The notes beneath the pieces are model-generated. The model did no database searches and was not told the DNA's origin. It saw only the letters and a program-made list of their open reading frames with translations. Below are positions 44,427-63,175 of a stretch of 64,000 bases of DNA, piece by piece. The position numbers and the translations under genes are program-made. Origin of the DNA: a virus; IMG/VR virus record IMGVR_UViG_3300006033_000016, positions 1-64,000 of that record. The stretch is one strand, 5' to 3'. The first letter of the stretch is position 1, and each line of letters begins with the position of its first letter.

Positions 44427-44714
44427 TTATACAGAAGAGGATATCCCGAGCCTGTCGAATTCAACTCTAAATTTAGCGCCTCCCTTGTAGGAAAGGGAGA
44501 TCACATTTCCTTCTGCATCTTTTACTTGTAGGGGATAACGGCGCAGGTGATCCCCTAGGAAAGCCATTACAGCATCCTCACACCCCTCTGTCACTACTCC
44601 CTCGAAAGAAAGTGTAGCTTTCACTACAGTAGGTCGTTGTACCTTGGAGATAGAGGAGGAGGGACTCTCCACAAAGCTAGCCGTAACGGATTTTGGTTTC
44701 TTGGGCATACTCAA
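44427..44714 (-). CDS. hypothetical protein, 95 aa
   Basis: Beta-rich, not recognised. Possible start 6 nt downstream at the second Met. Coupled to upstream gene by overlap. Confidence 0.6.
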   Translation of the reverse strand: MSMPKKPKSVTASFVESPSSSISKVQRPTVVKATLSFEGVVTEGCEDAVMAFLGDHLRRYPLQVKDAEGNVISLSYKGGAKFRVEFDRLGISSSV

Positions 44715-45031
44715 TCCAATCCAATGAGAAGACTTTTCATTCGTTCGGGGTCCAGCTCTCTGATACGCTCAGTTGCCCGTGCAACAAAAGATGGACGAGT
44801 AGGAAGCACAGGAGCCGCACGCAGCGTGATGGACAAGAAGCCTATCACCAGAAGAACGTCCAACTTGGACATGTCTACAGCGTCTAATAGCTCCCCTACC
44901 TTGTCGAACTCTCCAGCACAAAGCAAGTCATCTATGTGCTCGAACATGAAGTCTAGAATATCATGACTAGACCTGTGTAAGTGCACTTCCTGCAACTCAT
45001 CCAACCATGTATGCACGTCTTCCATCAACAA
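44711..45031 (-). CDS. hypothetical protein, 106 aa
   Basis: All-helical. Its plan (LDDL/LCAGEFDKV...LLDAVD) resembles the 114-aa protein at 50241 (MDDLMYAGEWEEVKYVL), so the two are probably paralogues. Function unknown. Confidence 0.65.
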   Translation of the reverse strand: MLMEDVHTWLDELQEVHLHRSSHDILDFMFEHIDDLLCAGEFDKVGELLDAVDMSKLDVLLVIGFLSITLRAAPVLPTRPSFVARATERIRELDPERMKSLLIGLD

Positions 45032-48523: not shown

Positions 48524-48554
48524 AGAAAGGGCCCGCAAATTGCGGGCCCTTTCT
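48524..48554. terminator. intrinsic terminator after Ro60-like gene
   Basis: Perfect 14-bp stem (AGAAAGGGCCCGCA and complement) with 3-nt loop and short T-tracts, 3 nt after the TROVE gene stop. Confidence 0.85.
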
Positions 48555-48557
48555 AGC

Positions 48558-50183
48558 TCAGTCCACTTGCATGGACTCTATTCTCTCAACCCAAAAGCTG
48601 GAGTCTGACCCCTGGGCGAAAGCAGAGACTACCTCAAACACGCTGTCAGAAAAACCGCCAATGTTGAGAACGGAGTTCCGCTCATCGGCGACTTGAGTCG
48701 TGGCATACGGCTGAATGTCGATGCAAACCAGCTTGCAGTCAGGGTTCTTCGCCTTGATGCGCTGCCAGCCAGCCTCAGAGGCGGTGGAAGCCCTACCCCA
48801 AGAAGAGACGGGTCTATCTAGCCACGATTCGTTGTCCGATACAATGATGATAACATCAGCCTTCTTGCCTTGAAGATGCTCAAAGCAGAGCGATACAGTG
48901 GTACCACCGCCACCAAATGAGGCCAACTTCTTCGCATTTGTCATAACCGAATCTCTTGGGTTTAGAGAAGCGGCGTGCATACGCGTGTCAAAAGGAAGCA
49001 CGTTGGCAGTGGGTGACGTACGAAGAATTGATGCTGAAACAAGCGCAGCAACATCAATACAACGGACACCAGTAGTAGCGCCCTTACGATGGCCTGTCAC
49101 TGGGCTGCTCATGGAGCCAGATACGTCAGGAAATACCCATACGTTCCCAGAGAGCGGAGGAACATTCTTGGTAGCTATCTCCATAGCATCCTGAAGCGCC
49201 AGTTTCAGTGGCATGGGGATATCCGAAGACGCCTCAGTAGCCTTGTACGCCATCAGAAGTTGATACGGGAATACTCTGGAACTAGAGATTTCTTTCTCGT
49301 CCCTAAGCTTGTCCGCCAGCTTTGACACTACGTCCGCATTCTTTAGCACACCATGGCGCGCAAAAGTGTTTAGATTCATACGAACAAAGTGCCAGCCACC
49401 GTTCAATGCAATCTCGGTCCACTGCTTTGTGTCCAGGTCCAAAGAAGTAAGCAACTGGAAGGGAACCTTGGGTACAGATGCTTTCTTGGGATTGGCCTTG
49501 AAAGCCTCAAACTCCCGAATAGAGTCAGGAAGAGTGGAAGCGATTCTTGCACCTTCTTTACCCAGAAGGTAATTGAAGGTGGCATGCTTCGCTGCATCAG
49601 ACCCAGACTTAGGATGTGCCAACTTAATGACATCCACCAAAGAAGGATCGTTGCCTACGGAATCACGAAAGATTTGGTCAGCAGTTCTGCGGTCAAACCA
49701 ATTGTTGATCACGCTCTTGCCCATGGTGCCGAGGCTCTTCCGCCCCGTAACACCAGATCGAACTACCTGCACGAAGTTTCGGAGCATCTTTGCGTTGTCA
49801 ATGACAATCGGAAAAACGGTACGAAACAAGCGGGAGGCCTCCACATCATTGTTGCCGGCACGAGCAAAAAGAACAGCCACCAAAAGGGCAGGCATGTCTT
49901 TCATGAAGGCAGACCTCCTGGAGTAAATGGCGGTCTTGGCAAGGAAGACGTTGTCCACCTTGGATGCCAGCTCCAGAGTCTTCGTCAACTGGTCCGAAGC
50001 AGAAGCGTAGTACGTGTTGCTGAAGGTGCCTGTGCAGGCATATTGCGCAAGGGCGGCACGATTTGTGAGCGGGTAAGCCAGACCTCCCGCTTCATTTCGA
50101 GTAACCTTTCCCTTAGAATCTAGGGGAACGGCCCTCGGCCTCTTACCTGCCGTAGCACCACCAAAAATAGACTTATTAGCCAT
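48558..50183 (-). CDS. TROVE-domain Ro60/Rsr-like RNA-binding protein
   Basis: 541 aa, the usual Ro60 length. Residues about 15-350 are the HEAT-repeat TROVE ring (RNEAGGLAYPLTNRAALAQY, then repeated helices). Residues about 355-540 are a VWA domain with intact MIDAS (FPDVSGSMSS, then GGGGTTVS and VSDNES). Ro60 binds Y RNAs and misfolded RNA ends and can guide exonucleases. Five Y RNA-like elements, four of them 0.4-1 kb upstream on the same strand, are its likely partners; a terminator follows. Confidence 0.93.
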   Translation of the reverse strand: MANKSIFGGATAGKRPRAVPLDSKGKVTRNEAGGLAYPLTNRAALAQYACTGTFSNTYYASASDQLTKTLELASKVDNVFLAKTAIYSRRSAFMKDMPALLVAVLFARAGNNDVEASRLFRTVFPIVIDNAKMLRNFVQVVRSGVTGRKSLGTMGKSVINNWFDRRTADQIFRDSVGNDPSLVDVIKLAHPKSGSDAAKHATFNYLLGKEGARIASTLPDSIREFEAFKANPKKASVPKVPFQLLTSLDLDTKQWTEIALNGGWHFVRMNLNTFARHGVLKNADVVSKLADKLRDEKEISSSRVFPYQLLMAYKATEASSDIPMPLKLALQDAMEIATKNVPPLSGNVWVFPDVSGSMSSPVTGHRKGATTGVRCIDVAALVSASILRTSPTANVLPFDTRMHAASLNPRDSVMTNAKKLASFGGGGTTVSLCFEHLQGKKADVIIIVSDNESWLDRPVSSWGRASTASEAGWQRIKAKNPDCKLVCIDIQPYATTQVADERNSVLNIGGFSDSVFEVVSAFAQGSDSSFWVERIESMQVD

Positions 50184-50240
50184 GAGACACCTCCATAGGA
50201 GTAGGGTTAATACACTAACGCACCCGTACGATGCGCAAAC

Positions 50241-50585
50241 TTACTTGAGTCTGTTTTCCGTGTAAGCCACACGGTCTTCTGTTTGTCCCCATGTGTGTAG
50301 CAGGGAGTTCATTGCACGAGACAAGAAGTCCGTTCTGGCCTCTCCTAGCTTCTCCCGTGCAGCCTTGGAGAAAGCTAATACACCTGTAAGTACCGTTGGA
50401 GGATACCTGTCAGTGCATATGGAGGCCAGAACATACTTGACTTCTTCCCACTCGCCTGCGTACATGAGGTCATCCATCAGGTCTATGATGGAATCTACGG
50501 ATTTCATGTGGGAAGTTCTATCGTTAGACAGAATAGAAAAAGAAGATAAGAGCACGGAGTTAGTTCTATCCCTTAGAGTAGCCAT
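50241..50585 (-). CDS. hypothetical protein, 114 aa
   Basis: Start set at 50585 (GAGAGGATTAGGC before the ATG); the longer ORF would run through an RNA element. Helical; paralogue-like to the protein at 44711. It lies between the Y RNA-like cluster and the Ro60-like gene in one apparent operon. Confidence 0.65.
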   Translation of the reverse strand: MATLRDRTNSVLLSSFSILSNDRTSHMKSVDSIIDLMDDLMYAGEWEEVKYVLASICTDRYPPTVLTGVLAFSKAAREKLGEARTDFLSRAMNSLLHTWGQTEDRVAYTENRLK

Positions 50586-50605
50586 GCCTAATCCTCTCAA
50601 AAAAT

Positions 50606-50673
50606 GTAGCGACAGAAGATGTATGAGACGAGTTTTCTCCAATGAAATGTAGTCCCACACTAGCATTCGCTAC
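50606..50673 (-). ncRNA. minimal Y RNA-like element (Y4)
   Basis: 68 nt. Ends pair (GTAGCGA with TCGCTAC) and enclose the conserved AATGC (5' side) and TTCTG (3' side), then a second helix GGGAC/GTCTC followed by TACA, as in the larger copies. Instead of a tRNA-like domain there are only about 18 nt. ATTTTTT follows. It looks like a bare Ro-binding stem. Confidence 0.6.
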
Positions 50674-50676
50674 GTT

Positions 50677-50750
50677 TGGTTGCGGTCGCCGGAGCTGCCC
50701 CAGGTCCTATAGGTTATGAGCCTATCGTGCGTCTACTACACTACCCCGCA
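50677..50750 (-). tRNA. tRNA-Met (anticodon CAU), divergent
   Basis: 74 nt in normal order with encoded CCA. Anticodon arm ATAGG-CTCATAA-CCTAT is perfect. The acceptor pairs only five bases (TGCGG/CCGCA) and the T loop is GGCAGCT rather than TTCRANY, so it is unusual or decaying. It sits between Y RNA-like elements Y3 and Y4. CAU could mean initiator, elongator or (modified) Ile. Confidence 0.65.
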
Positions 50751-50755
50751 AAAAT

Positions 50756-50876
50756 GGACGACAGAAGGTGAAAGAGACATATACTAGCACCTTGCTCCCT
50801 CCCTAAGGAGGGCCTGGGAATCGAACCCAGATCGTTTGATTAACGGTCAAATGTAGTCCCAATCGGTCATTCGTCC
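50756..50876 (-). ncRNA. Y RNA-like element with permuted tRNA-like domain (Y3)
   Basis: 121 nt. Ends GGACGA/TCGTCC pair; conserved ATG and TTCTG flank the internal loop; second helix GGGAC/GTCTC, then TACA. Next come an anticodon-like arm (TTTGA-CCGTTAA-TCAAA), a T arm (CTGGG-TTCGATT-CCCAG), an acceptor-like stem CCCTCC/GGAGGG closed by TTAG, and a short D-like arm. The 3'-part-before-5'-part order and closed stem fit a YrlA-type tRNA mimic. A T-tract follows. Confidence 0.7.
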
Positions 50877-50885
50877 GAAACATAT

Positions 50886-51009
50886 GTGCTGACAGAATTG
50901 AAAAAGACGTAGTTACTGATGTCCTTCCATTAGACTAGATCTCCGGAGAGACCTCGGGAGTCGAACCCGAATCCCCAGTTTGGATTGTAGTCTTTCTCGC
51001 ATTCAGCAC
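50886..51009 (-). ncRNA. Y RNA-like element with permuted tRNA-like domain (Y2)
   Basis: 124 nt. Ends GTGCTGA/TCAGCAC; AATGC and ATTCTG; helix AAAGAC/GTCTTT then TACA. Inside: a 5-bp hairpin AATCC/GGATT with 7-nt loop, T arm TCGGG-TTCGACT-CCCGA, acceptor-like stem GGTCTC/GAGATC closed by TCCG, then a good D arm (GTCT-AATGGAA-GGAC). Confidence 0.72.
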
Positions 51010-51010
51010 G

Positions 51011-51154
51011 AAAAAAAAATGTGGCAACAGAAATCGCAAGAGTGAATTTACGCGTGCTACTCTTACACTAAGCTGCGTCAAAAATCGCAGCCCCAGGAGT
51101 TGCACCTGGTCCTCGTCCTCCGAATGGATGTACACCCTTACAGGCATTTGCCAC
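51011..51154 (-). ncRNA. Y RNA-like element with permuted tRNA-like domain (Y1)
   Basis: 134 nt plus a 9-T tail. Ends GTGGCAA/TTGCCAC; AATGC and TTTCTG; helix AAGGGT/ACTCTT with TACA 1 nt later. T arm CCAGG-TGCAACT-CCTGG, perfect 7-bp acceptor-like stem GGCTGCG/CGCAGCT joined by an 8-nt loop, and D arm GTGT-AAGAGTA-GCAC. First member of the cluster, about 80 nt after a promoter-like motif. Confidence 0.72.
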
Positions 51155-51231
51155 GTAACCTATTTAGTTTTCAGAGTCGGTGACTCTAGCAGTCTTCAAC
51201 CGAGTGTCAAGAAAAAAGTGAAGACTCTGGT

Positions 51232-51480
51232 TCAACTAGTATGCACAGGGTTCGTCCTATCTAAGACTGCTGGAAGTTCTCTTTCCAGCACAACTGTCAC
51301 GACTTCCGGATCAACGGGAGATACTATCACGTTTACACAACGCCACCCGTCATCAGCATGACTAGTCAAACTCTTTTGAAGAAGTTCTGCACTTAACACG
51401 TGCTTGTAGTAGGTTCCTGTCTCGTCGTACTCTGCTGACGTAATGTCTACGATCTCTACAAGGTATTCAAACTTCTTCAT
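51232..51480 (-). CDS. DUF4177-like protein, 82 aa
   Basis: MKKFEYLVEIVDI, then LLQKSLTSHADDGWRCVNVIV and VVLERE, follow the short DUF4177 pattern (FEYKV...LN..G.EGWELV...LKR). Function of that family is unknown. Confidence 0.68.
   Translation of the reverse strand: MKKFEYLVEIVDITSAEYDETGTYYKHVLSAELLQKSLTSHADDGWRCVNVIVSPVDPEVVTVVLERELPAVLDRTNPVHTS
51235..51253 (-). promoter_or_regulatory. repeated promoter-like motif, copy 6
   Basis: Minus strand reads GAACCCTGTGCATACTAG. It overlaps the last codons of the DUF4177-like gene and reads into the Y RNA-like cluster, tRNA-Met and the Ro60-like gene. About 80 nt of leader separate it from Y1. Confidence 0.65.
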
Positions 51481-52008: not shown

Positions 52009-52190
52009 TCTCTAGCTCTTCTTCTCGCGGTATCTGCGGGCAGTCTAGAAAGACTCTGAAATAAACGAATAACGTTTGGATCCCATGCTTGCTTTCTGGC
52101 AACTTTTATGGAAGACCCTAAAGCAAAGGAGAGGATAGCATCGACACTGGAGGAGTTTAGAATAACTGGAGACCAATCGATTCTAATCAT
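51981..52190 (-). CDS. hypothetical protein, 69 aa
   Basis: Basic C-terminus (ADTARRRAREWAKRNGYL). Coupled to the ligase gene by a 4-nt overlap; not recognised. Confidence 0.6.
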   Translation of the reverse strand: MIRIDWSPVILNSSSVDAILSFALGSSIKVARKQAWDPNVIRLFQSLSRLPADTARRRAREWAKRNGYL

Positions 52191-54379
52191 GACATATCCT
52201 CTTCCATCCTAAAGCCTATTCCAACAGGAAATCTTGGGATTCCGTCATCTGTGAGATCGAAGTACTTTACCTTCAACAAGCACCCCACATAAGATTCGGC
52301 TTCTTGCAGAAGTCTTTTTCGCTCTTCCATCGAGCCCATGGATACCACCTGAAAGGTGTTATCTCCAGCTTTACAGATCCATACAGCACAGTCAGCAAAC
52401 TTGCCCTTGCCCGTAGTATACCCTACAACCTCATACTCCGAGTCATTAAAGGATTTGACCTTGAGTAATCTCTTGGACCTATAAGCAAACTGATATTTGC
52501 TATCATCGTACATCCTGACGATGGCTCCCTCGTACCCTTTCGAGACTACCTTATTGTGGATCCTAAGGATTTCGTCTTCGTTGTGAGCCTCATAAGTCTC
52601 GACCAAATGAACAACGTCCCCTAATCTATGGGAGGATGTGTTAAAGAAAGCGTATAGGTGGTGATACCTGTCAACCCAGCTGGCGCTTCGGTCATTAAGC
52701 AGCACACAGTCGTACACATGATATTGTATCTTGCTTGTGTTCGCTTGTAACTTCTTCACCCACGAAGTAATGGTCTGAAACCCGACTCCGTGCAAGTAAA
52801 GCTCCCCGTCTAAAACTAGATTCGGAGGGAGGACGTTCTTCAGAACAGAAATTATGTGAGGACAGTTGTACTCCTTCCCTCCTCGGGAAAGGAGCTTCAA
52901 GTCTTCTCCGTCCCAGTAAGCAAGAGCCCTACAATTATGGATAACATGTCCATTCGCCACATATGTGTGGTTGTCTTCAACCTCGATGTCATATTTAGCA
53001 GCAACAGGCATGAACTTAGCGTGCCTCACATGGAATCGCTGCCAGACAGGTCCTTTTGTTACAGGTCTTACATACCCTTCAGTCGGGAAGTAAAACTTGT
53101 ATTCAACACCCTTGCAGTGCTTTGTTCTTAACTTGTTCAAGATCCAAAGAGTGTCCTTGGTACTAAAGCAAAGAAACTTTCCAGGGACATTACCGGTGTC
53201 CTCTACTACCTTGTCTGTGTACACAGAAGGAGTACAATCCCACTCTGATCTAAAGTATTTCCTGTATTCCTCGATCTGATCCTCTGAAGAGGAGTGAGTG
53301 TGCAAGTATAAACGAGGCGTGGTTGGGTCTCCATTATTATTCTGTATGGAACCATCATCACCGATCCACAATGCCAAGGCTTCTGGGGAAAGAAGCTCAC
53401 GTAAGGTTTCGTGATACACTACCTTACGTTTTCCAACATTAGGTGAGTGACCTGTGTGATAAAACCTAGATATAGGGAATGTGGACGAAGTGAGAGCGGA
53501 AGAAATGAACGCCTTCCCTCTGGATCCAAATCCAGAAGTGTACGTTACAGACGAGCCAGTGAGCCCTAAAAGGCTCTTCTTGAATTCAAAGAATTCTTTG
53601 TTTGTATGAGCGAACTTTGACCTGTATGATGTCCCAGACCCACGTTTTTCCACGACCAGCATAGAATCACCCAGGAGGGTCCCAGCCAGCAAAGAGTTGA
53701 AGTACGAACTGTCGTCAAAAGAAAGTATTAGATCGCATTTAGGGTCTAGGTCTCGGGCTTCCTTCCATCCAGATGGAGTGAGAAACTTATGATCGCTAGT
53801 GCACTTAATGTGATTACCAAATTCAGGAACTACGTCTAACCAATGAGTGTGGTCCGCATACCCGTTATTGAACCAACCTACAACTCTCTTAAACTCAAAC
53901 ACCTCTTTGCTTTCATTGTAAGAGAGAACTTCTAGGGAAAGTCTCCCTTCTACAATTTCTTGGATTGTCTTTGGTCCATCTGAGGTAGTCAAGACTGTGC
54001 TACCATAGACGCAACCATCCAGTTTAGGCTGCACGTCACACGGATAGGTGTGACCGTCCTTCTTCTGACCTCTTCGCTTCTCGAATTCAGAAGCCAACAT
54101 GGGAAGAAATATCTCATCATTTTTGGCTTCATCAATAGTACGACGATACTTTCTCTCTACTCGATGAGTCCACATGGACTTAGCTTCAGCAACCGCTTGT
54201 TCTTCTGGTGTGGTGGCATTGGACTTGTCCACGTTCTTGGCGTCAGCTGTCTTTCGAGCAAGCTGCTTTTTACCGTCTATTTGACCATATTCTGTGCACA
54301 CGTCAGCTCCCTCTGTCCATACTCTCCAGGAGTATAGAGCACCAGAGGAACCCTTGTGGTATAAGGTGTCAAACTGCAT
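52187..54379 (-). CDS. ATP-dependent DNA ligase containing an intein
   Basis: 730 aa from the ATG at 54379 (TGATG overlap with the upstream stop). Without the 360-aa intein the ligase is 370 aa, like T7 ligase. Residues 1-75 resemble a WGR-type domain seen on other viral ligases. The nucleotidyl motif QPKLDG (adenylated Lys 119) is split by the intein, resuming CRALAY; later motifs are LDGELY, KGYEGAIVR and LLKVKSF. Seals nicks during replication or repair; splicing is needed to rebuild the active site. Confidence 0.93.
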   Translation of the reverse strand: MQFDTLYHKGSSGALYSWRVWTEGADVCTEYGQIDGKKQLARKTADAKNVDKSNATTPEEQAVAEAKSMWTHRVERKYRRTIDEAKNDEIFLPMLASEFEKRRGQKKDGHTYPCDVQPKLDGCVYGSTVLTTSDGPKTIQEIVEGRLSLEVLSYNESKEVFEFKRVVGWFNNGYADHTHWLDVVPEFGNHIKCTSDHKFLTPSGWKEARDLDPKCDLILSFDDSSYFNSLLAGTLLGDSMLVVEKRGSGTSYRSKFAHTNKEFFEFKKSLLGLTGSSVTYTSGFGSRGKAFISSALTSSTFPISRFYHTGHSPNVGKRKVVYHETLRELLSPEALALWIGDDGSIQNNNGDPTTPRLYLHTHSSSEDQIEEYRKYFRSEWDCTPSVYTDKVVEDTGNVPGKFLCFSTKDTLWILNKLRTKHCKGVEYKFYFPTEGYVRPVTKGPVWQRFHVRHAKFMPVAAKYDIEVEDNHTYVANGHVIHNCRALAYWDGEDLKLLSRGGKEYNCPHIISVLKNVLPPNLVLDGELYLHGVGFQTITSWVKKLQANTSKIQYHVYDCVLLNDRSASWVDRYHHLYAFFNTSSHRLGDVVHLVETYEAHNEDEILRIHNKVVSKGYEGAIVRMYDDSKYQFAYRSKRLLKVKSFNDSEYEVVGYTTGKGKFADCAVWICKAGDNTFQVVSMGSMEERKRLLQEAESYVGCLLKVKYFDLTDDGIPRFPVGIGFRMEEDMS
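52934..54013 (-). mobile_element. intein with LAGLIDADG endonuclease in ligase motif I
   Basis: 360 aa, residues 123-482 of the precursor. Splice signals: Cys at position 1 (CVYGSTVL), block B CTSDHKFLT near 71, C-terminal AAKYDIEVEDNHTYVANGHVIHN region ending HN, and Cys as first residue of the C-extein. Two endonuclease motifs, LLAGTLLGDS near 109 and ALALWIGDDGS near 213, suggest it is still mobile. The insertion point is directly after KLDG. Confidence 0.93.
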
Positions 54380-54633
54380 CAAAGAGGGTCCTTTTCCACA
54401 CACTCAGGGCACAGGATAGATACCGCGTCATAGTATGGAATAGTATTTGTATACCTAAACTTTGAGTCAACGAAATATCCATATCTTTCTTTCCACATCC
54501 ATCCGGCAGGAAGAGTCAAGTTATGGTGTTTCGTGTCCTCAGGCTGAAGTGGTCTGACCTCTCCGACAAAAACTTTCATATCCGCTTGTGCGGCGCACCT
54601 GTGGCATTCCACAGTCATGTGGCAGTAGAACAT
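54379..54633 (-). CDS. small zinc-binding protein, 84 aa
   Basis: CHRC (near residue 10) and CPEC (near 76) can form a split zinc site. Joined to both neighbours by TGATG overlaps. Function unknown. Confidence 0.65.
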   Translation of the reverse strand: MFYCHMTVECHRCAAQADMKVFVGEVRPLQPEDTKHHNLTLPAGWMWKERYGYFVDSKFRYTNTIPYYDAVSILCPECVEKDPL

Positions 54634-55999: not shown

Positions 56000-56119
56000 T
56001 GGCCCCACACCCAGGAATTGAACCCGGATTCTGCTAGTACGTAACTACAACGGACCTAAGGTGGCGTTATGAGCCCGGTTTTCAGGACTCAAGTAGCAGA
56101 AGCTCTCCAGAGATGTGGG
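56000..56119 (-). tRNA. tRNA-like gene with ~50-nt insertion in the anticodon loop
   Basis: Normal order with encoded CCA: acceptor CCCACAT/GTGTGGG, very short D arm (CTC/GAG), T arm CCGGG-TTCAATT-CCTGG. The anticodon stem TGCTA/TAGCA encloses 57 nt. Removing about 50 nt between CTTG and TAC would leave loop CTTGTAC (anticodon UGU, Thr), but this junction is a guess. The insert can fold (GAGTCC/GGGCTC; ACC/GGT). Confidence 0.5.
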
Positions 56120-56142
56120 ATACTCCTCATATAAGGATAGAA

Positions 56143-57108: not shown

Positions 57109-57111
57109 AAA

Positions 57112-57235
57112 GTGCCAACAGGATTTATAAAGACGTTTGGACTATTGCTCTACCATTTGAGCTACCACATCGTTTCCGAGGTGGACTGGAATCGAACCAG
57201 CACGCGACAGTTGTAGTCTTTACAGCATTTGGCAC
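57112..57235 (-). ncRNA. Y RNA-like element with permuted tRNA-like domain (Y5)
   Basis: 124 nt, 6 kb from the other copies and 3 nt before tRNA-Trp. Ends GTGCCAA/TTGGCAC; AATGC and ATCCTG; helix TAAAGAC/GTCTTTA then TACA. T arm GCTGG-TTCGATT-CCAGT; acceptor-like stem CCACCTCG/CGATGTGG with one mismatch closed by a GAAA tetraloop; D arm GCTC-AAATGGTA-GAGC. Has no separate anticodon-like hairpin. Confidence 0.72.
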
Positions 57236-59965: not shown

Positions 59966-60615
59966 TGGAGCTGACGGGGATCGAACCCCATCTTTGTACC
60001 TAGACGAGTGTAGGAGCCTAGTGAATGCCCAACCGTCTTCGCCCCACACATGGGTTCGAATTTCCCCATGTTGGAGTTAAACTATGACAGTTTGGGCAAA
60101 GCAGCCTAAGATTTGATGGTACAGTATTTAGACAATTACCATCTATGTGGTCGACCTGAAGAGGTATGTTCCCCGTTACTTCGTTGACCTCAGCCCATCC
60201 GCATTTCTCGCACTTAGAATCTGCTCGGTCAAACAACCAACGTTTTACATGAGAGGAAAGCTGCTTCTGCGCATTGTTAATATGTCCTGAAACTTCTCCT
60301 GAAACCCATTTTTCGATGTATAGATTATACTGATAATCAAACTGGCATCTATTACTACAATAATGACTACGTTTGTTGGTTAGAGGAGTACTACATCGTA
60401 GGCAATTAGGGTGTGCAAGGTACGGATCAGTTTTTAACTTGTGCTTTACGAGCCAATAACGTATACGTCCTTTGCTGCAGCCTAAACGCTTAGCAATGTT
60501 CTGTATTGATAGTTTTTCGTTTACTAAAGATTCAAGAAGATCGTATTCCACACTTAAATCATAAGTGAGAGTAAGATCTCTTCTAACTTTACTCTCCCAG
60601 CTGAGCTACAGCCCC
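59966..60615 (-). tRNA. tRNA-Ala-like gene split by an insert carrying an HNH gene
   Basis: The 5' part (acceptor GGGGCTG, D arm GCTC-AGCTGGGA-GAGT) ends near 60590; the 3' part (T loop TTCGATC, acceptor CAGCTCC, A73) starts near 59990. Acceptor halves pair over 7 bp with one G-U. The 5' part closely resembles bacterial tRNA-Ala. Between them lie about 40 nt, the HNH gene and about 30 nt. The anticodon arm could not be rebuilt, so this is either an intron-bearing gene or a disrupted one. Confidence 0.55.
60018..60551 (-). CDS. HNH homing endonuclease inside tRNA-Ala-like gene
   Basis: 177 aa, GTG start. N-terminal helix-turn-helix (LSIQNIAKRLGCSKGRIRYW, about 13-32), zinc Cys pair CLRC...CSNRC near 50-70, then the HNH core CEKCGW near 115, LQVDHIDGN near 132 and LRLLCPNCHSLT near 147. 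Its position between tRNA halves suggests intron or insertional homing. Confidence 0.85.
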   Translation of the reverse strand: MEYDLLESLVNEKLSIQNIAKRLGCSKGRIRYWLVKHKLKTDPYLAHPNCLRCSTPLTNKRSHYCSNRCQFDYQYNLYIEKWVSGEVSGHINNAQKQLSSHVKRWLFDRADSKCEKCGWAEVNEVTGNIPLQVDHIDGNCLNTVPSNLRLLCPNCHSLTPTWGNSNPCVGRRRLGIH

Positions 60616-61103
60616 ATACCTTTTTCTTTACAGTGTTTTGTATAGTACCACAAGGCTTCCTGTCCTGCTTCGGACAGAGAAGAACAAGGAATTTTTCTTT
60701 TCTCCTTAGCGTAAAGCCAAGTAAGATAGGTCATCTTCTCGGCCGATTCCGGATACCCAAAAACTATATCCTTGTCCCGAAGCCATAAACCGAATTCTAC
60801 GTTGGTAGTAAAGCCCGGCATTCCTTCTGACAGGGATCTTGGAACCCAGAACAGAAGTAAGTTGCAAGAGGATATGGCCAGATACTCCCATTCAGTTTGG
60901 TGATCGTAATTACCGTGAAACGTACCTGTCCTATCCTCTGGGTAGAACAGGCAAACGTTGTCCGTCTTCCCGAAAATACTCTCCAGTTCTCTCACAGCAG
61001 AAGGGCGCCAAGACTTAGCGTTAGAGTCGCGAGGAGTAGGACCTGCGAGAAATATGCTGAAGGACGTGTAGGTGAGTGGTTCTAGAGCGTAACAAATGTT
61101 CAT
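60606..61103 (-). CDS. nucleoside 2-deoxyribosyltransferase-like protein
   Basis: 165 aa. IFLAGPTPRDSNAKSWRPSA (about 17-36), YDHQTEWEYLAISSCNLLLFWVPR near 67-90 and TTNVEFGLW near 101 match the deoxyribosyltransferase-like fold, with Glu 105 (NVEFG) as the likely nucleophile. Related enzymes cleave or swap N-glycosidic bonds of nucleosides or nucleotides. Its last 10 nt overlap the 5' end of the tRNA-Ala-like gene. Confidence 0.8.
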   Translation of the reverse strand: MNICYALEPLTYTSFSIFLAGPTPRDSNAKSWRPSAVRELESIFGKTDNVCLFYPEDRTGTFHGNYDHQTEWEYLAISSCNLLLFWVPRSLSEGMPGFTTNVEFGLWLRDKDIVFGYPESAEKMTYLTWLYAKEKRKIPCSSLSEAGQEALWYYTKHCKEKGMGL

Positions 61104-62975: not shown

Positions 62976-63175
62976 CGCCCCTGGGAAGACTCGAACTTCC
63001 ACCACCTAAACCAAAACCTAGAATTAGGAAACGCGCTTCCCTAGCGACCCTGGTCCTCAGTGCCATTCGGTGCCTCTGCAACCTTAAGGTTTCCCTGCTT
63101 TATAGGCAGGTGCTTAGATGCCATTTACGGCCCGGCTCCGTTTTTCCGGTGTTCTTCCTTTTGAACTTCAGGGGC
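62976..63175 (-). tRNA. tRNA-Gln (UUG) interrupted by a ~128-nt insert
   Basis: Acceptor GCCCCTG/CAGGGGC, D arm GTTC-AAAAGGAA-GAAC, T arm GGAAG-TTCGAGT-CTTCC, G73. The anticodon stem strands CCGGA and TTAGG (one G-A mismatch) and a 4-nt variable loop are restored if the insert lies between stem base 31 and loop TTTTGGT, giving anticodon UUG. The insert folds locally (CCTGC/GCAGG, AACCTTAAGGTT) and contains GGGAAACC as in group I introns but is too short for a full core. Confidence 0.65.

What the first reader, a model, noticed from the sequence alone, without database searches (positions are those of the whole stretch)
48524..51253. Phage Ro60 operon with its own set of Y RNA-like RNAs
Upstream of a TROVE/Ro60-like gene, on the same strand, lie four elements with one plan: pairing ends whose sequence differs between copies but stays complementary (GTGGCAA/TTGCCAC, GTGCTGA/TCAGCAC, GGACGA/TCGTCC, GTAGCGA/TCGCTAC), fixed AATG(C) and YTCTG just inside, a second helix RRGAC/GTCYY and then TACA. 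Three of them carry T arm, acceptor-like stem and D arm in permuted order with the acceptor stem closed by a short loop, the layout expected of YrlA-type tRNA mimics. A promoter-like motif precedes them and a terminator follows the Ro gene. Seen: the repeats, compensatory changes and gene order. Known: Ro60 binds Y RNAs, and bacterial YrlA RNAs mimic tRNA. Inferred: they are partners. Several distinct Y RNAs per phage would be unusual.
Basis: partly seen in the sequence, partly recalled or inferred. Interest (0 to 1): 0.92.

Follow-up and report, generated by a model that had tools for sequence, protein, structure and literature searches.

The report
Phage Ro60 with tRNA-mimicking Y RNAs
A large bacterial virus carries its own Ro60 protein gene together with at least seven different small Y-type RNAs, most of them built as a rearranged tRNA (some with an anticodon) mounted on a Ro60-binding handle, which points to a virus-borne machine for gripping or decoying tRNA-handling enzymes.

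Summary
On the minus strand, upstream of a true Ro60/Rsr gene (48558-50183), lie four Y RNA-like elements: three with permuted tRNA heads (E1-E3) and one short (E4). The phage has more: E5 at 57112-57235, and E7 and E8 beyond the window. A model built partly from them finds 3-13 copies in nine viral records. Helices covary strongly: 96.9% of cells pair versus 65% shuffled. A fixed descriptor gives 37 hits and none in shuffles. Elements accompany Ro60 in related phages (including Mx1, Myrna, csAss) and bacteria, so the Y RNA interpretation is supported. Two corrections: several Y RNAs per Ro locus is ordinary, since bacterial Rsr loci often hold 2-6; and all elements score below Rfam's YrlA cut-off (51 versus 69). 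New here: in this lineage the head is often a complete, circularly permuted tRNA including an anticodon arm. In bacteria 38 of 60 elements show it in one exact register; four such elements pass Rfam's YrlA cut-off. In the phage, E3 holds an intact Asn(GUU) arm. E7 carries a stretch resembling 23S rRNA H69-H71. Function (tether or decoy) is inferred; nothing was tested experimentally.

The parts
48558..50183 (-). Ro60/Rsr gene (541 aa; TROVE + vWA domains, MIDAS motif)
   Evidence: Pfam vWA_Ro60 7.8e-13, TROVE 3.4e-6; Rsr 2nvo 4.7e-38 by profile; predicted fold TM 0.74 to Ro60 1yvp
51021..51154 (-). E1, long Y RNA: end helix 51148-51154/51021-51027, inner helix 51133-51137/51040-51044, anticodon-arm-like hairpin UCC-AUUCGGA-GGA 51116-51128, T arm 51093-51109, closed acceptor-like helix 51071-51092, D arm 51054-51068
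   Evidence: 113.8 bits in model R1 (a founding sequence); same class in G001, G002, G004, G008, G009, G014 and in bacteria; coordinates
50886..51009 (-). E2, long Y RNA: end helix 51003-51009/50886-50892, inner helix 50990-50994/50904-50908, T arm 50954-50970, acceptor-like 50938-50953, D arm 50921-50935; anticodon stem UCAGU/ACUGG opened in its loop
   Evidence: Rfam YrlA 44.3 bits, E 2.9e-8
50756..50876 (-). E3, long Y RNA: end helix 50871-50876/50756-50761, inner helix 50856-50860/50774-50778, intact anticodon arm UUUGA-CCGUUAA-UCAAA (anticodon GUU) 50835-50851, T arm 50814-50830, acceptor-like 50796-50813, reduced D arm
   Evidence: R1 55.8 bits (not a founding sequence); ARAGORN calls the un-permuted form tRNA-Asn(gtt) in one of the joins tried
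50606..50673 (-). E4, short Y RNA without tRNA head (YrlB-like): end helix 50667-50673/50606-50612, inner helix GUGUGGGAC/GUCUCAUAC 50652-50660/50621-50629
   Evidence: Fold z -4.6; short-type relatives in other Ro60 phages; Rfam YrlB 16.8 bits, well below cut-off 97
57112..57235 (-). E5, long Y RNA outside the given coordinates: end helix GUGCCAA/UUGGCAC, inner AAGAC/GUCUU, T arm 57185-57201, acceptor-like 57165-57184, D arm 57147-57162; anticodon stem AUAGU/ACUGU opened in its loop
   Evidence: Rfam YrlA 51.2 bits, E 7.2e-12
50241..50586 (-). small ORF between E4 and the Ro gene (likely start ATG 50584-50586 after GAGAGGA; the longer ORF start at 50666 lies inside E4)
   Evidence: no Pfam match for the longer 141-aa ORF
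51183..51210 (-). promoter-like site TTGACA-16-TAGAGT with TG before the second hexamer, upstream of E1
   Evidence: number of such sites in the region is at chance
48524..48554 (-). perfect 15-bp inverted repeat just after the Ro60 stop codon, terminator-like
   Evidence: read directly; not listed by the scan

Best explanation
This is a phage-borne Ro60 (Rsr) gene with a set of Y RNAs of the bacterial YrlA/YrlB kind. Each RNA has a Ro60-binding handle (end helix, AAUGC, inner helix, UACA); most then carry a head that is a circularly permuted tRNA: T arm, acceptor helix closed by a short loop, D arm and, in many, an anticodon arm. Most likely the handle docks on the Ro60 ring and the tRNA-shaped head brings in or occupies a tRNA-binding host enzyme (PNPase as in the known RYPER particle, or tRNA-modifying, tRNA-cleaving or tRNA-repairing enzymes). 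The phage keeps at least seven such RNAs, whose heads mimic different tRNAs and in one case resemble 23S rRNA, so that one Ro60 can be aimed at several partners or shield several RNA targets during infection. Shown here: sequences, helices, covariation, co-occurrence with Ro60, tRNA layout. Inferred: expression, Ro60 binding, the effector and the benefit to the phage. I put RNA class and Ro60 partnership at about 0.93 and the tether/bait mechanism at about 0.45.
For: Ro60 identity: (MIDAS residues D353, S355, S357, T428, D450 invariant). RNA identity: Rfam YrlA E 2.9e-8 and 7.2e-12; descriptor 37 vs 0 in shuffles; covariation. Partnership: model R1 hits in all ten records searched, 2-13 each; next to bacterial Rsr genes; one each upstream of Ro in Myrna (32.2 bits) and csAss phage (38.4 bits). 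Link to bona fide YrlA: homologous elements beside bacterial Rsr genes pass Rfam's cut-off. tRNA head: T arms 100% paired and acceptor helix 95.5% paired with changes on both sides; anticodon arm in exact register. Known biology: Rsr and Y RNA tether PNPase (PMC4726728, PMC8394870); YrlA is modified by TruB and DusA as tRNAs are (PMC8394870).
Against: No expression or binding data. All elements score below the Rfam YrlA gathering score (51.2, 44.3, 16.9 vs 69). No RtcB in the 133-kb record, so the Salmonella-type RNA-repair context is absent, though the record may be a fragment. E5, E7 and E8 are not next to Ro60. A PNPase link cannot be seen from sequence.
Confidence: 0.82

Rival explanations
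1. The anticodon-bearing heads are decoys: permuted, non-translatable tRNAs displayed on Ro60 that bind and blunt host anticodon nucleases or other tRNA-directed defences.
For: Anticodon arms with native-looking loops (U33, R37, A38) and varied anticodons occur far above shuffles in phage and bacterial elements. E3 keeps a full 5-bp Asn(GUU) arm. Competitive inhibition of an anticodon nuclease by YrlA is raised as a possibility in PMC7790460. Phage tRNAs are reported to help against tRNA-targeting defences (titles and abstracts of PMC10264068 and PMC11555353).
Against: E2 and E5 are opened in the anticodon loop and present no anticodon; E4 and E7 have no tRNA head. The same arms occur in cellular Y RNAs, so they are not a phage-specific anti-defence device. 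[quoted passage not shown]
Confidence: 0.3
2. The elements are functional permuted tRNA genes, spliced to mature tRNAs, as known (from memory) in red algae and some archaea.
For: Complete permuted tRNA layout. Divergent relative E6 at G000:69187-69343 encodes GCCA between the acceptor strands.
Against: E1-E3 and E5 lack CCA; acceptor helices are closed by loops as short as 2-8 nt; they keep a strongly covarying Ro-type handle that a spliced tRNA would not need; no splicing machinery was shown.
Confidence: 0.04
3. The elements are tRNA pseudogenes or recombination debris of the phage tRNA island with chance inverted repeats.
For: They lie in a tRNA island with degenerate and interrupted tRNAs. 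Weak hits to the YrlA model do arise from ordinary genomes (control rings in 13 of 14 at E<=1).
Against: Zero descriptor hits in shuffles; compensatory changes in every helix; co-occurrence with Ro60 across phages and bacteria.
Confidence: 0.02

Closest known systems
Bacterial YrlA Y RNAs with Rsr (Rfam RF02553; Salmonella, M. smegmatis and, more loosely, D. radiodurans Y RNA)
   Same: Paired ends with GAAUGC and CUUGUC, inner helix + UACA, T arm / closed acceptor / D arm in permuted order, encoded beside Ro60.
   Different: Phage elements score below the Rfam cut-off; the sets are larger and partly dispersed through a tRNA island; many heads include an anticodon arm, whereas the description I could read (PMC8394870) names D, T and acceptor arms only and the Rfam consensus has no such hairpin.
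YrlB (Rfam RF02565)
   Same: E4: short, same handle, no tRNA head, encoded in the same cluster.
   Different: Only 16.8 bits against a cut-off of 97.
Phage Ro60 genes (mycobacteriophages, Streptomyces phages, crAss-like phages, Thermus phage phiLo structure 9l5y)
   Same: TROVE/Ro60 in phages is known and annotated; Myrna and csAss also have one R1 match upstream of Ro.
   Different: This Ro60 is nearer to bacterial Rsr of Verrucomicrobia and Acidobacteria (50-56% identity) than to those phage proteins (about 22-26%), and it comes with many Y RNAs.
rsr-yrlBA-rtcBA RNA-repair operon of Salmonella (PMC7790460)
   Same: Ro60 orthologue plus YrlA and YrlB as one unit.
   Different: No RtcB found in this phage record; Y RNAs upstream of the Ro gene, Ro last.

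Membership tests
Ro60 / Rsr protein | TROVE (HEAT-repeat) plus vWA domains with Ro60 fold | tested here: met
   Pfam TROVE 27 bits (cut-off 23), vWA_Ro60 49.1 (27.7); fold TM 0.74 to 1yvp, 0.63 to 2nvo
Ro60 / Rsr protein | MIDAS metal site DxSxS...T...D in the vWA domain | tested here: met
   D353, S355, S357, T428, D450 invariant in 18 phage and bacterial sequences
Ro60 / Rsr protein | binds Y RNA and misfolded RNA | not testable with these tools
   needs protein-RNA binding or pull-down
Bacterial Y RNA, YrlA type | paired 5'/3' ends forming the Ro60-binding helix with conserved AAUGC and UACA | tested here: met
Bacterial Y RNA, YrlA type | tRNA-like head with T, acceptor and D arms | tested here: met
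   E1, E2, E3 (D arm reduced), E5 met; E8 has a T arm only, E4 and E7 have none
Bacterial Y RNA, YrlA type | encoded near a Ro60 orthologue | tested here: met
   E1-E4 within 1 kb upstream; E5 7 kb and E7/E8 15-16 kb away in the same tRNA island
Rfam RF02553 (YrlA) as curated | score at or above the gathering score of 69 bits | tested here: not met
   E5 51.2, E2 44.3, E3 16.9 bits. Homologous bacterial elements found by the same model R1 do pass: 69.1-85.6 bits
Rfam RF02565 (YrlB) as curated | score at or above 97 bits | tested here: not met
   E4 16.8 bits
Bacterial Y RNA | physically bound by Ro60; head modified by TruB/DusA | not testable with these tools
   wet-lab assays needed
Functional tRNA / permuted tRNA gene | recognised as tRNA in place, or permuted with CCA and processable ends | tested here: not met
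   ARAGORN lists none of E1-E5 in place; no CCA in E1-E3, E5; E6 outside the window has GCCA

The most novel reading that the evidence does not exclude
The head of these Y RNAs is a complete tRNA, not a partial mimic: circularly permuted, ends closed by a loop, with a real anticodon arm. The Ro60-binding helix is plugged in at one of three places (before nt 27, between nt 28 and 29, or in the anticodon loop). The phage displays a panel of such tRNAs with different anticodons, plus one RNA resembling 23S rRNA H69-H71, on Ro60 to capture or mislead tRNA- and rRNA-handling enzymes of its host.
Probability: 0.3. Interest if true: 0.85.

Novelty: new variant of a known kind. Interest (0 to 1): 0.62.

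Why it matters
What Ro60-Y RNA particles do in bacteria and phages is poorly known. If the heads are whole permuted tRNAs with chosen anticodons, their partners should include anticodon-reading enzymes (nucleases, modification and repair enzymes), not only PNPase, and this can be tested head by head. A phage that maintains seven or more different Y RNAs offers natural variants for that test, and ties Ro60 to the contest between phage tRNAs and tRNA-targeting host defences.

Tried and rejected
Rfam search of the whole window at curated thresholds showed only tRNAs; restricting the region was needed to see YrlA. Weak YrlA hits in whole genomes are unreliable: at E<=1 the control rings in 13 of 14 ordinary genomes, so I used my own descriptor and model instead. 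'Several Y RNAs per phage is unusual' was rejected from bacterial loci. Anticodon arms as a phage speciality was rejected: they are as clear in cellular elements. Permuted functional tRNA genes were rejected for E1-E5 (no CCA; strong Ro handle). An RtcB-type repair operon was not found in this record. Rfam found no rRNA family in the 23S-like stretch of E7, so that reading rests on direct alignment. A fuzzy pattern scan timed out. Key papers on bacterial Y RNAs (Chen 2014; Wang 2018; Sim and Wolin 2018) are not in the library, so whether they mention an anticodon arm could not be checked.
Full report
WHAT IS THERE. The window is the first 64 kb of a 133-kb IMG/VR virus record. On its minus strand 48558-50183 encodes a 541-aa protein with TROVE and vWA_Ro60 domains. 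A profile of it and its relatives matches D. radiodurans Rsr 2nvo at 4.7e-38, and its predicted structure (pLDDT 81.6) matches Ro60 1yvp with TM 0.74. Elements E1-E3 have T arm, acceptor-like helix closed by a short loop, and D arm in that order; E4 is short and has no tRNA head.

The Rfam YrlA model finds E5 at 57109-57235 with 51.2 bits (E 7.2e-12), and E2 with 44.3 bits. A motif scan adds E7 (record 65323-65477) and E8 (66094-66194), both with 7 of 7 Watson-Crick end pairs. Two further permuted tRNA-like RNAs, E6 (69187-69343, with GCCA between the acceptor strands) and E9 (about 69044-69143), have a divergent handle or none. All lie on the minus strand within a tRNA island.

CHANCE. A descriptor (7-bp end helix, AATG, inner helix, TAC/TACA, YTG) finds 37 elements in 516 kb around Ro60 genes of this and related phages and none in three shuffles. 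On 32 phage elements aligned to model R1, 96.9% of cells form pairs against 64.9% for shuffles and 42-52% for slid registers; 256 cells show changes on both sides against 72 shuffled. The alignment was fitted to the structure, so it leans that way, but the end helix alone shows GC, CG, UA and AU at single positions.

CO-OCCURRENCE. Viral contigs with a related Ro60 (40-75% identity) carry R1 matches: 13 in the 75% relative G001, 9 in G008, 3-6 in the six other viral relatives searched, 2 in Myxococcus phage Mx1, and 8 in this record by the tool's tally, one of them the partial E9 match (E7 is not in that list but was found). Some of the weaker matches in that list cover only part of the model. 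Distant Ro phages Myrna and csAss have one each upstream of Ro (32.2 and 38.4 bits). Bacterial Rsr genes at about 50-56% identity (Verrucomicrobia, Acidobacteria, Myxococcota, Proteobacteria) have the same elements beside them; by the strict descriptor 64 of 80 loci have at least one, 52 at least two and the richest six. So several Y RNAs per Ro60 is normal in this Ro60 lineage. The Ro60 tree groups this phage with G001 (100/100) and, more weakly, Mx1, and needs more than one transfer between bacteria and phages.

WHOLE TRNA. The stretch between UACA and the T arm was tested for an anticodon arm. In 38 phage elements, hairpins with a 7-nt loop and at least 4 bp at the right place number 11, against 1.4 +- 1.2 in shuffles, maximum 6 of 1000. 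In bacterial elements with a 20-26-nt stretch, 38 of 60 have a 3-bp hairpin with a 7-nt loop exactly 7 nt before the T stem; neighbouring registers give 0-2. There are 15 different stem sequences, position 33 is U in 37 of 40, 37 is purine in 34 of 40, and 34-36 vary freely. The two bases after position 26, just behind the D arm, pair with the two bases that follow this hairpin in 35 of 39 elements (other offsets 1-4), which leaves a variable loop that reads AGGUC, UGGUC or GGGUC in 29 of 39. This is a complete tRNA, circularly permuted, with the Y helix inserted in the 5' strand of the anticodon stem between positions 28 and 29. E1 follows this plan (UCC-AUUCGGA-GGA). E3 has an unbroken 5-bp anticodon arm UUUGA-CCGUUAA-UCAAA with a CGAU variable loop, so its Y helix sits before position 27. 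E2 and E5 have stems UCAGU/ACUGG and AUAGU/ACUGU opened in the loop (read directly from the sequences). ARAGORN reads un-permuted E3 as tRNA-Asn(gtt), E1 as Arg(tcg) and a G001 element as Ile(gat) in some of the joins tried; other joins give other calls or none. Bacterial elements with this arm, such as L125:9943, L154:9747, L141:9614 and L123:9710, are bona fide YrlA by Rfam's own cut-off, so the arm belongs to YrlA of this lineage. The review I could read describes YrlA as having D, T and acceptor arms (PMC8394870). The primary papers were not available, so I cannot claim the arm is undescribed.

A 23S-LIKE Y RNA. E7 and its relative in G001 (L058:13281-13466) have the Ro handle but no tRNA head. 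Both contain a stretch resembling the universal 23S rRNA segment H69-H71, centred on CCUAAG--AGCGA. E7 scores 32 against a shuffle maximum of 29 of 1000, the G001 copy 29 against 23. The reference segment, which I wrote from memory, was verified as E. coli 23S rRNA. The query was chosen after seeing the sequence, so this is suggestive only; conservation between the two phages at the same place is the better argument.

MECHANISM. Known: bacterial Rsr binds the end helix of Y RNAs, and Y RNA tethers Rsr to PNPase (PMC4726728, PMC8394870). YrlA is a substrate of TruB and DusA (PMC8394870). In Salmonella a role of YrlA as competitive inhibitor of an anticodon nuclease was considered (PMC7790460). 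Inferred here: phage Ro60 is loaded with alternative Y RNAs whose heads present different tRNAs (or an rRNA piece) and thereby recruit or occupy different host enzymes. I hold the tether view somewhat more likely than the decoy view; nothing in the sequence separates them.

MEMBERSHIP. The protein meets the tests for Ro60. The RNAs meet the structural tests for bacterial Y RNAs but fail Rfam's numeric cut-offs for YrlA (69) and YrlB (97), so I call them Y RNAs of the YrlA/YrlB kind, not members of those Rfam families. That phages encode Y RNAs near Ro60 was, from my memory of Chen et al. 2014, already reported; phage Ro60 also has a solved structure (phiLo, 9l5y). New here are this lineage's large dispersed set, the full-tRNA anatomy and the possible 23S mimic.

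Noticed in passing
window 50681-50749, minus strand: Degenerate tRNA-Met(CAT)-like sequence with encoded CCA (Rfam tRNA 23 bits, below cut-off; acceptor mismatches, T loop GGCAGCU) between E3 and E4.
   Followed up: partly
window 59985-60617, minus strand: tRNA-Ala-like gene split by about 0.55 kb containing an HNH-type ORF: 5' half GGGGCUGUAGCUCAGCUGGGAGAG, 3' half GAUGGGGUUCGAUCCCCGUCAGCUCCA.
   Followed up: no
window 56010-56140, minus strand: tRNA-like gene with intact acceptor and T arms but a long insertion around the anticodon (UUCUGCUA...UAGCAGAA stem); possible small intron or another tRNA mimic.
   Followed up: no
window 62985-63160, minus strand: T-arm-like hairpin GGAAG-UUCGAGU-CUUCC after about 130 nt of structured-looking sequence; not assigned to a family.
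   Followed up: no
G000:69187-69343 and 69044-69143, minus strand (L005): Two permuted tRNA-like RNAs with a divergent or no Ro handle; the first encodes GCCA between the acceptor strands, the second has an acceptor helix extended to about 20 bp.
   Followed up: partly
G000:65323-65477 minus strand and L058:13281-13466 minus strand: Orthologous Y RNA-like elements without a tRNA head that carry a 23S rRNA H69-H71-like stretch (CCUAAG--AGCGA).
   Followed up: partly
window 52187-54403, minus strand: ATP-dependent DNA ligase interrupted by an in-frame LAGLIDADG intein-like insertion (PHROG ligase 1.3e-71, homing endonuclease 4.1e-8).
   Followed up: no
window 50241-50586 and 44711-45031, minus strand: Two small ORFs of unknown function with a similar sequence pattern (D-L--AGE---V----L), apparent paralogues; one sits between E4 and Ro60.
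   Followed up: no
L080:4871-8033: A Blastocatellia Rsr locus with Y RNA-like elements on both sides of the Rsr gene.
   Followed up: no
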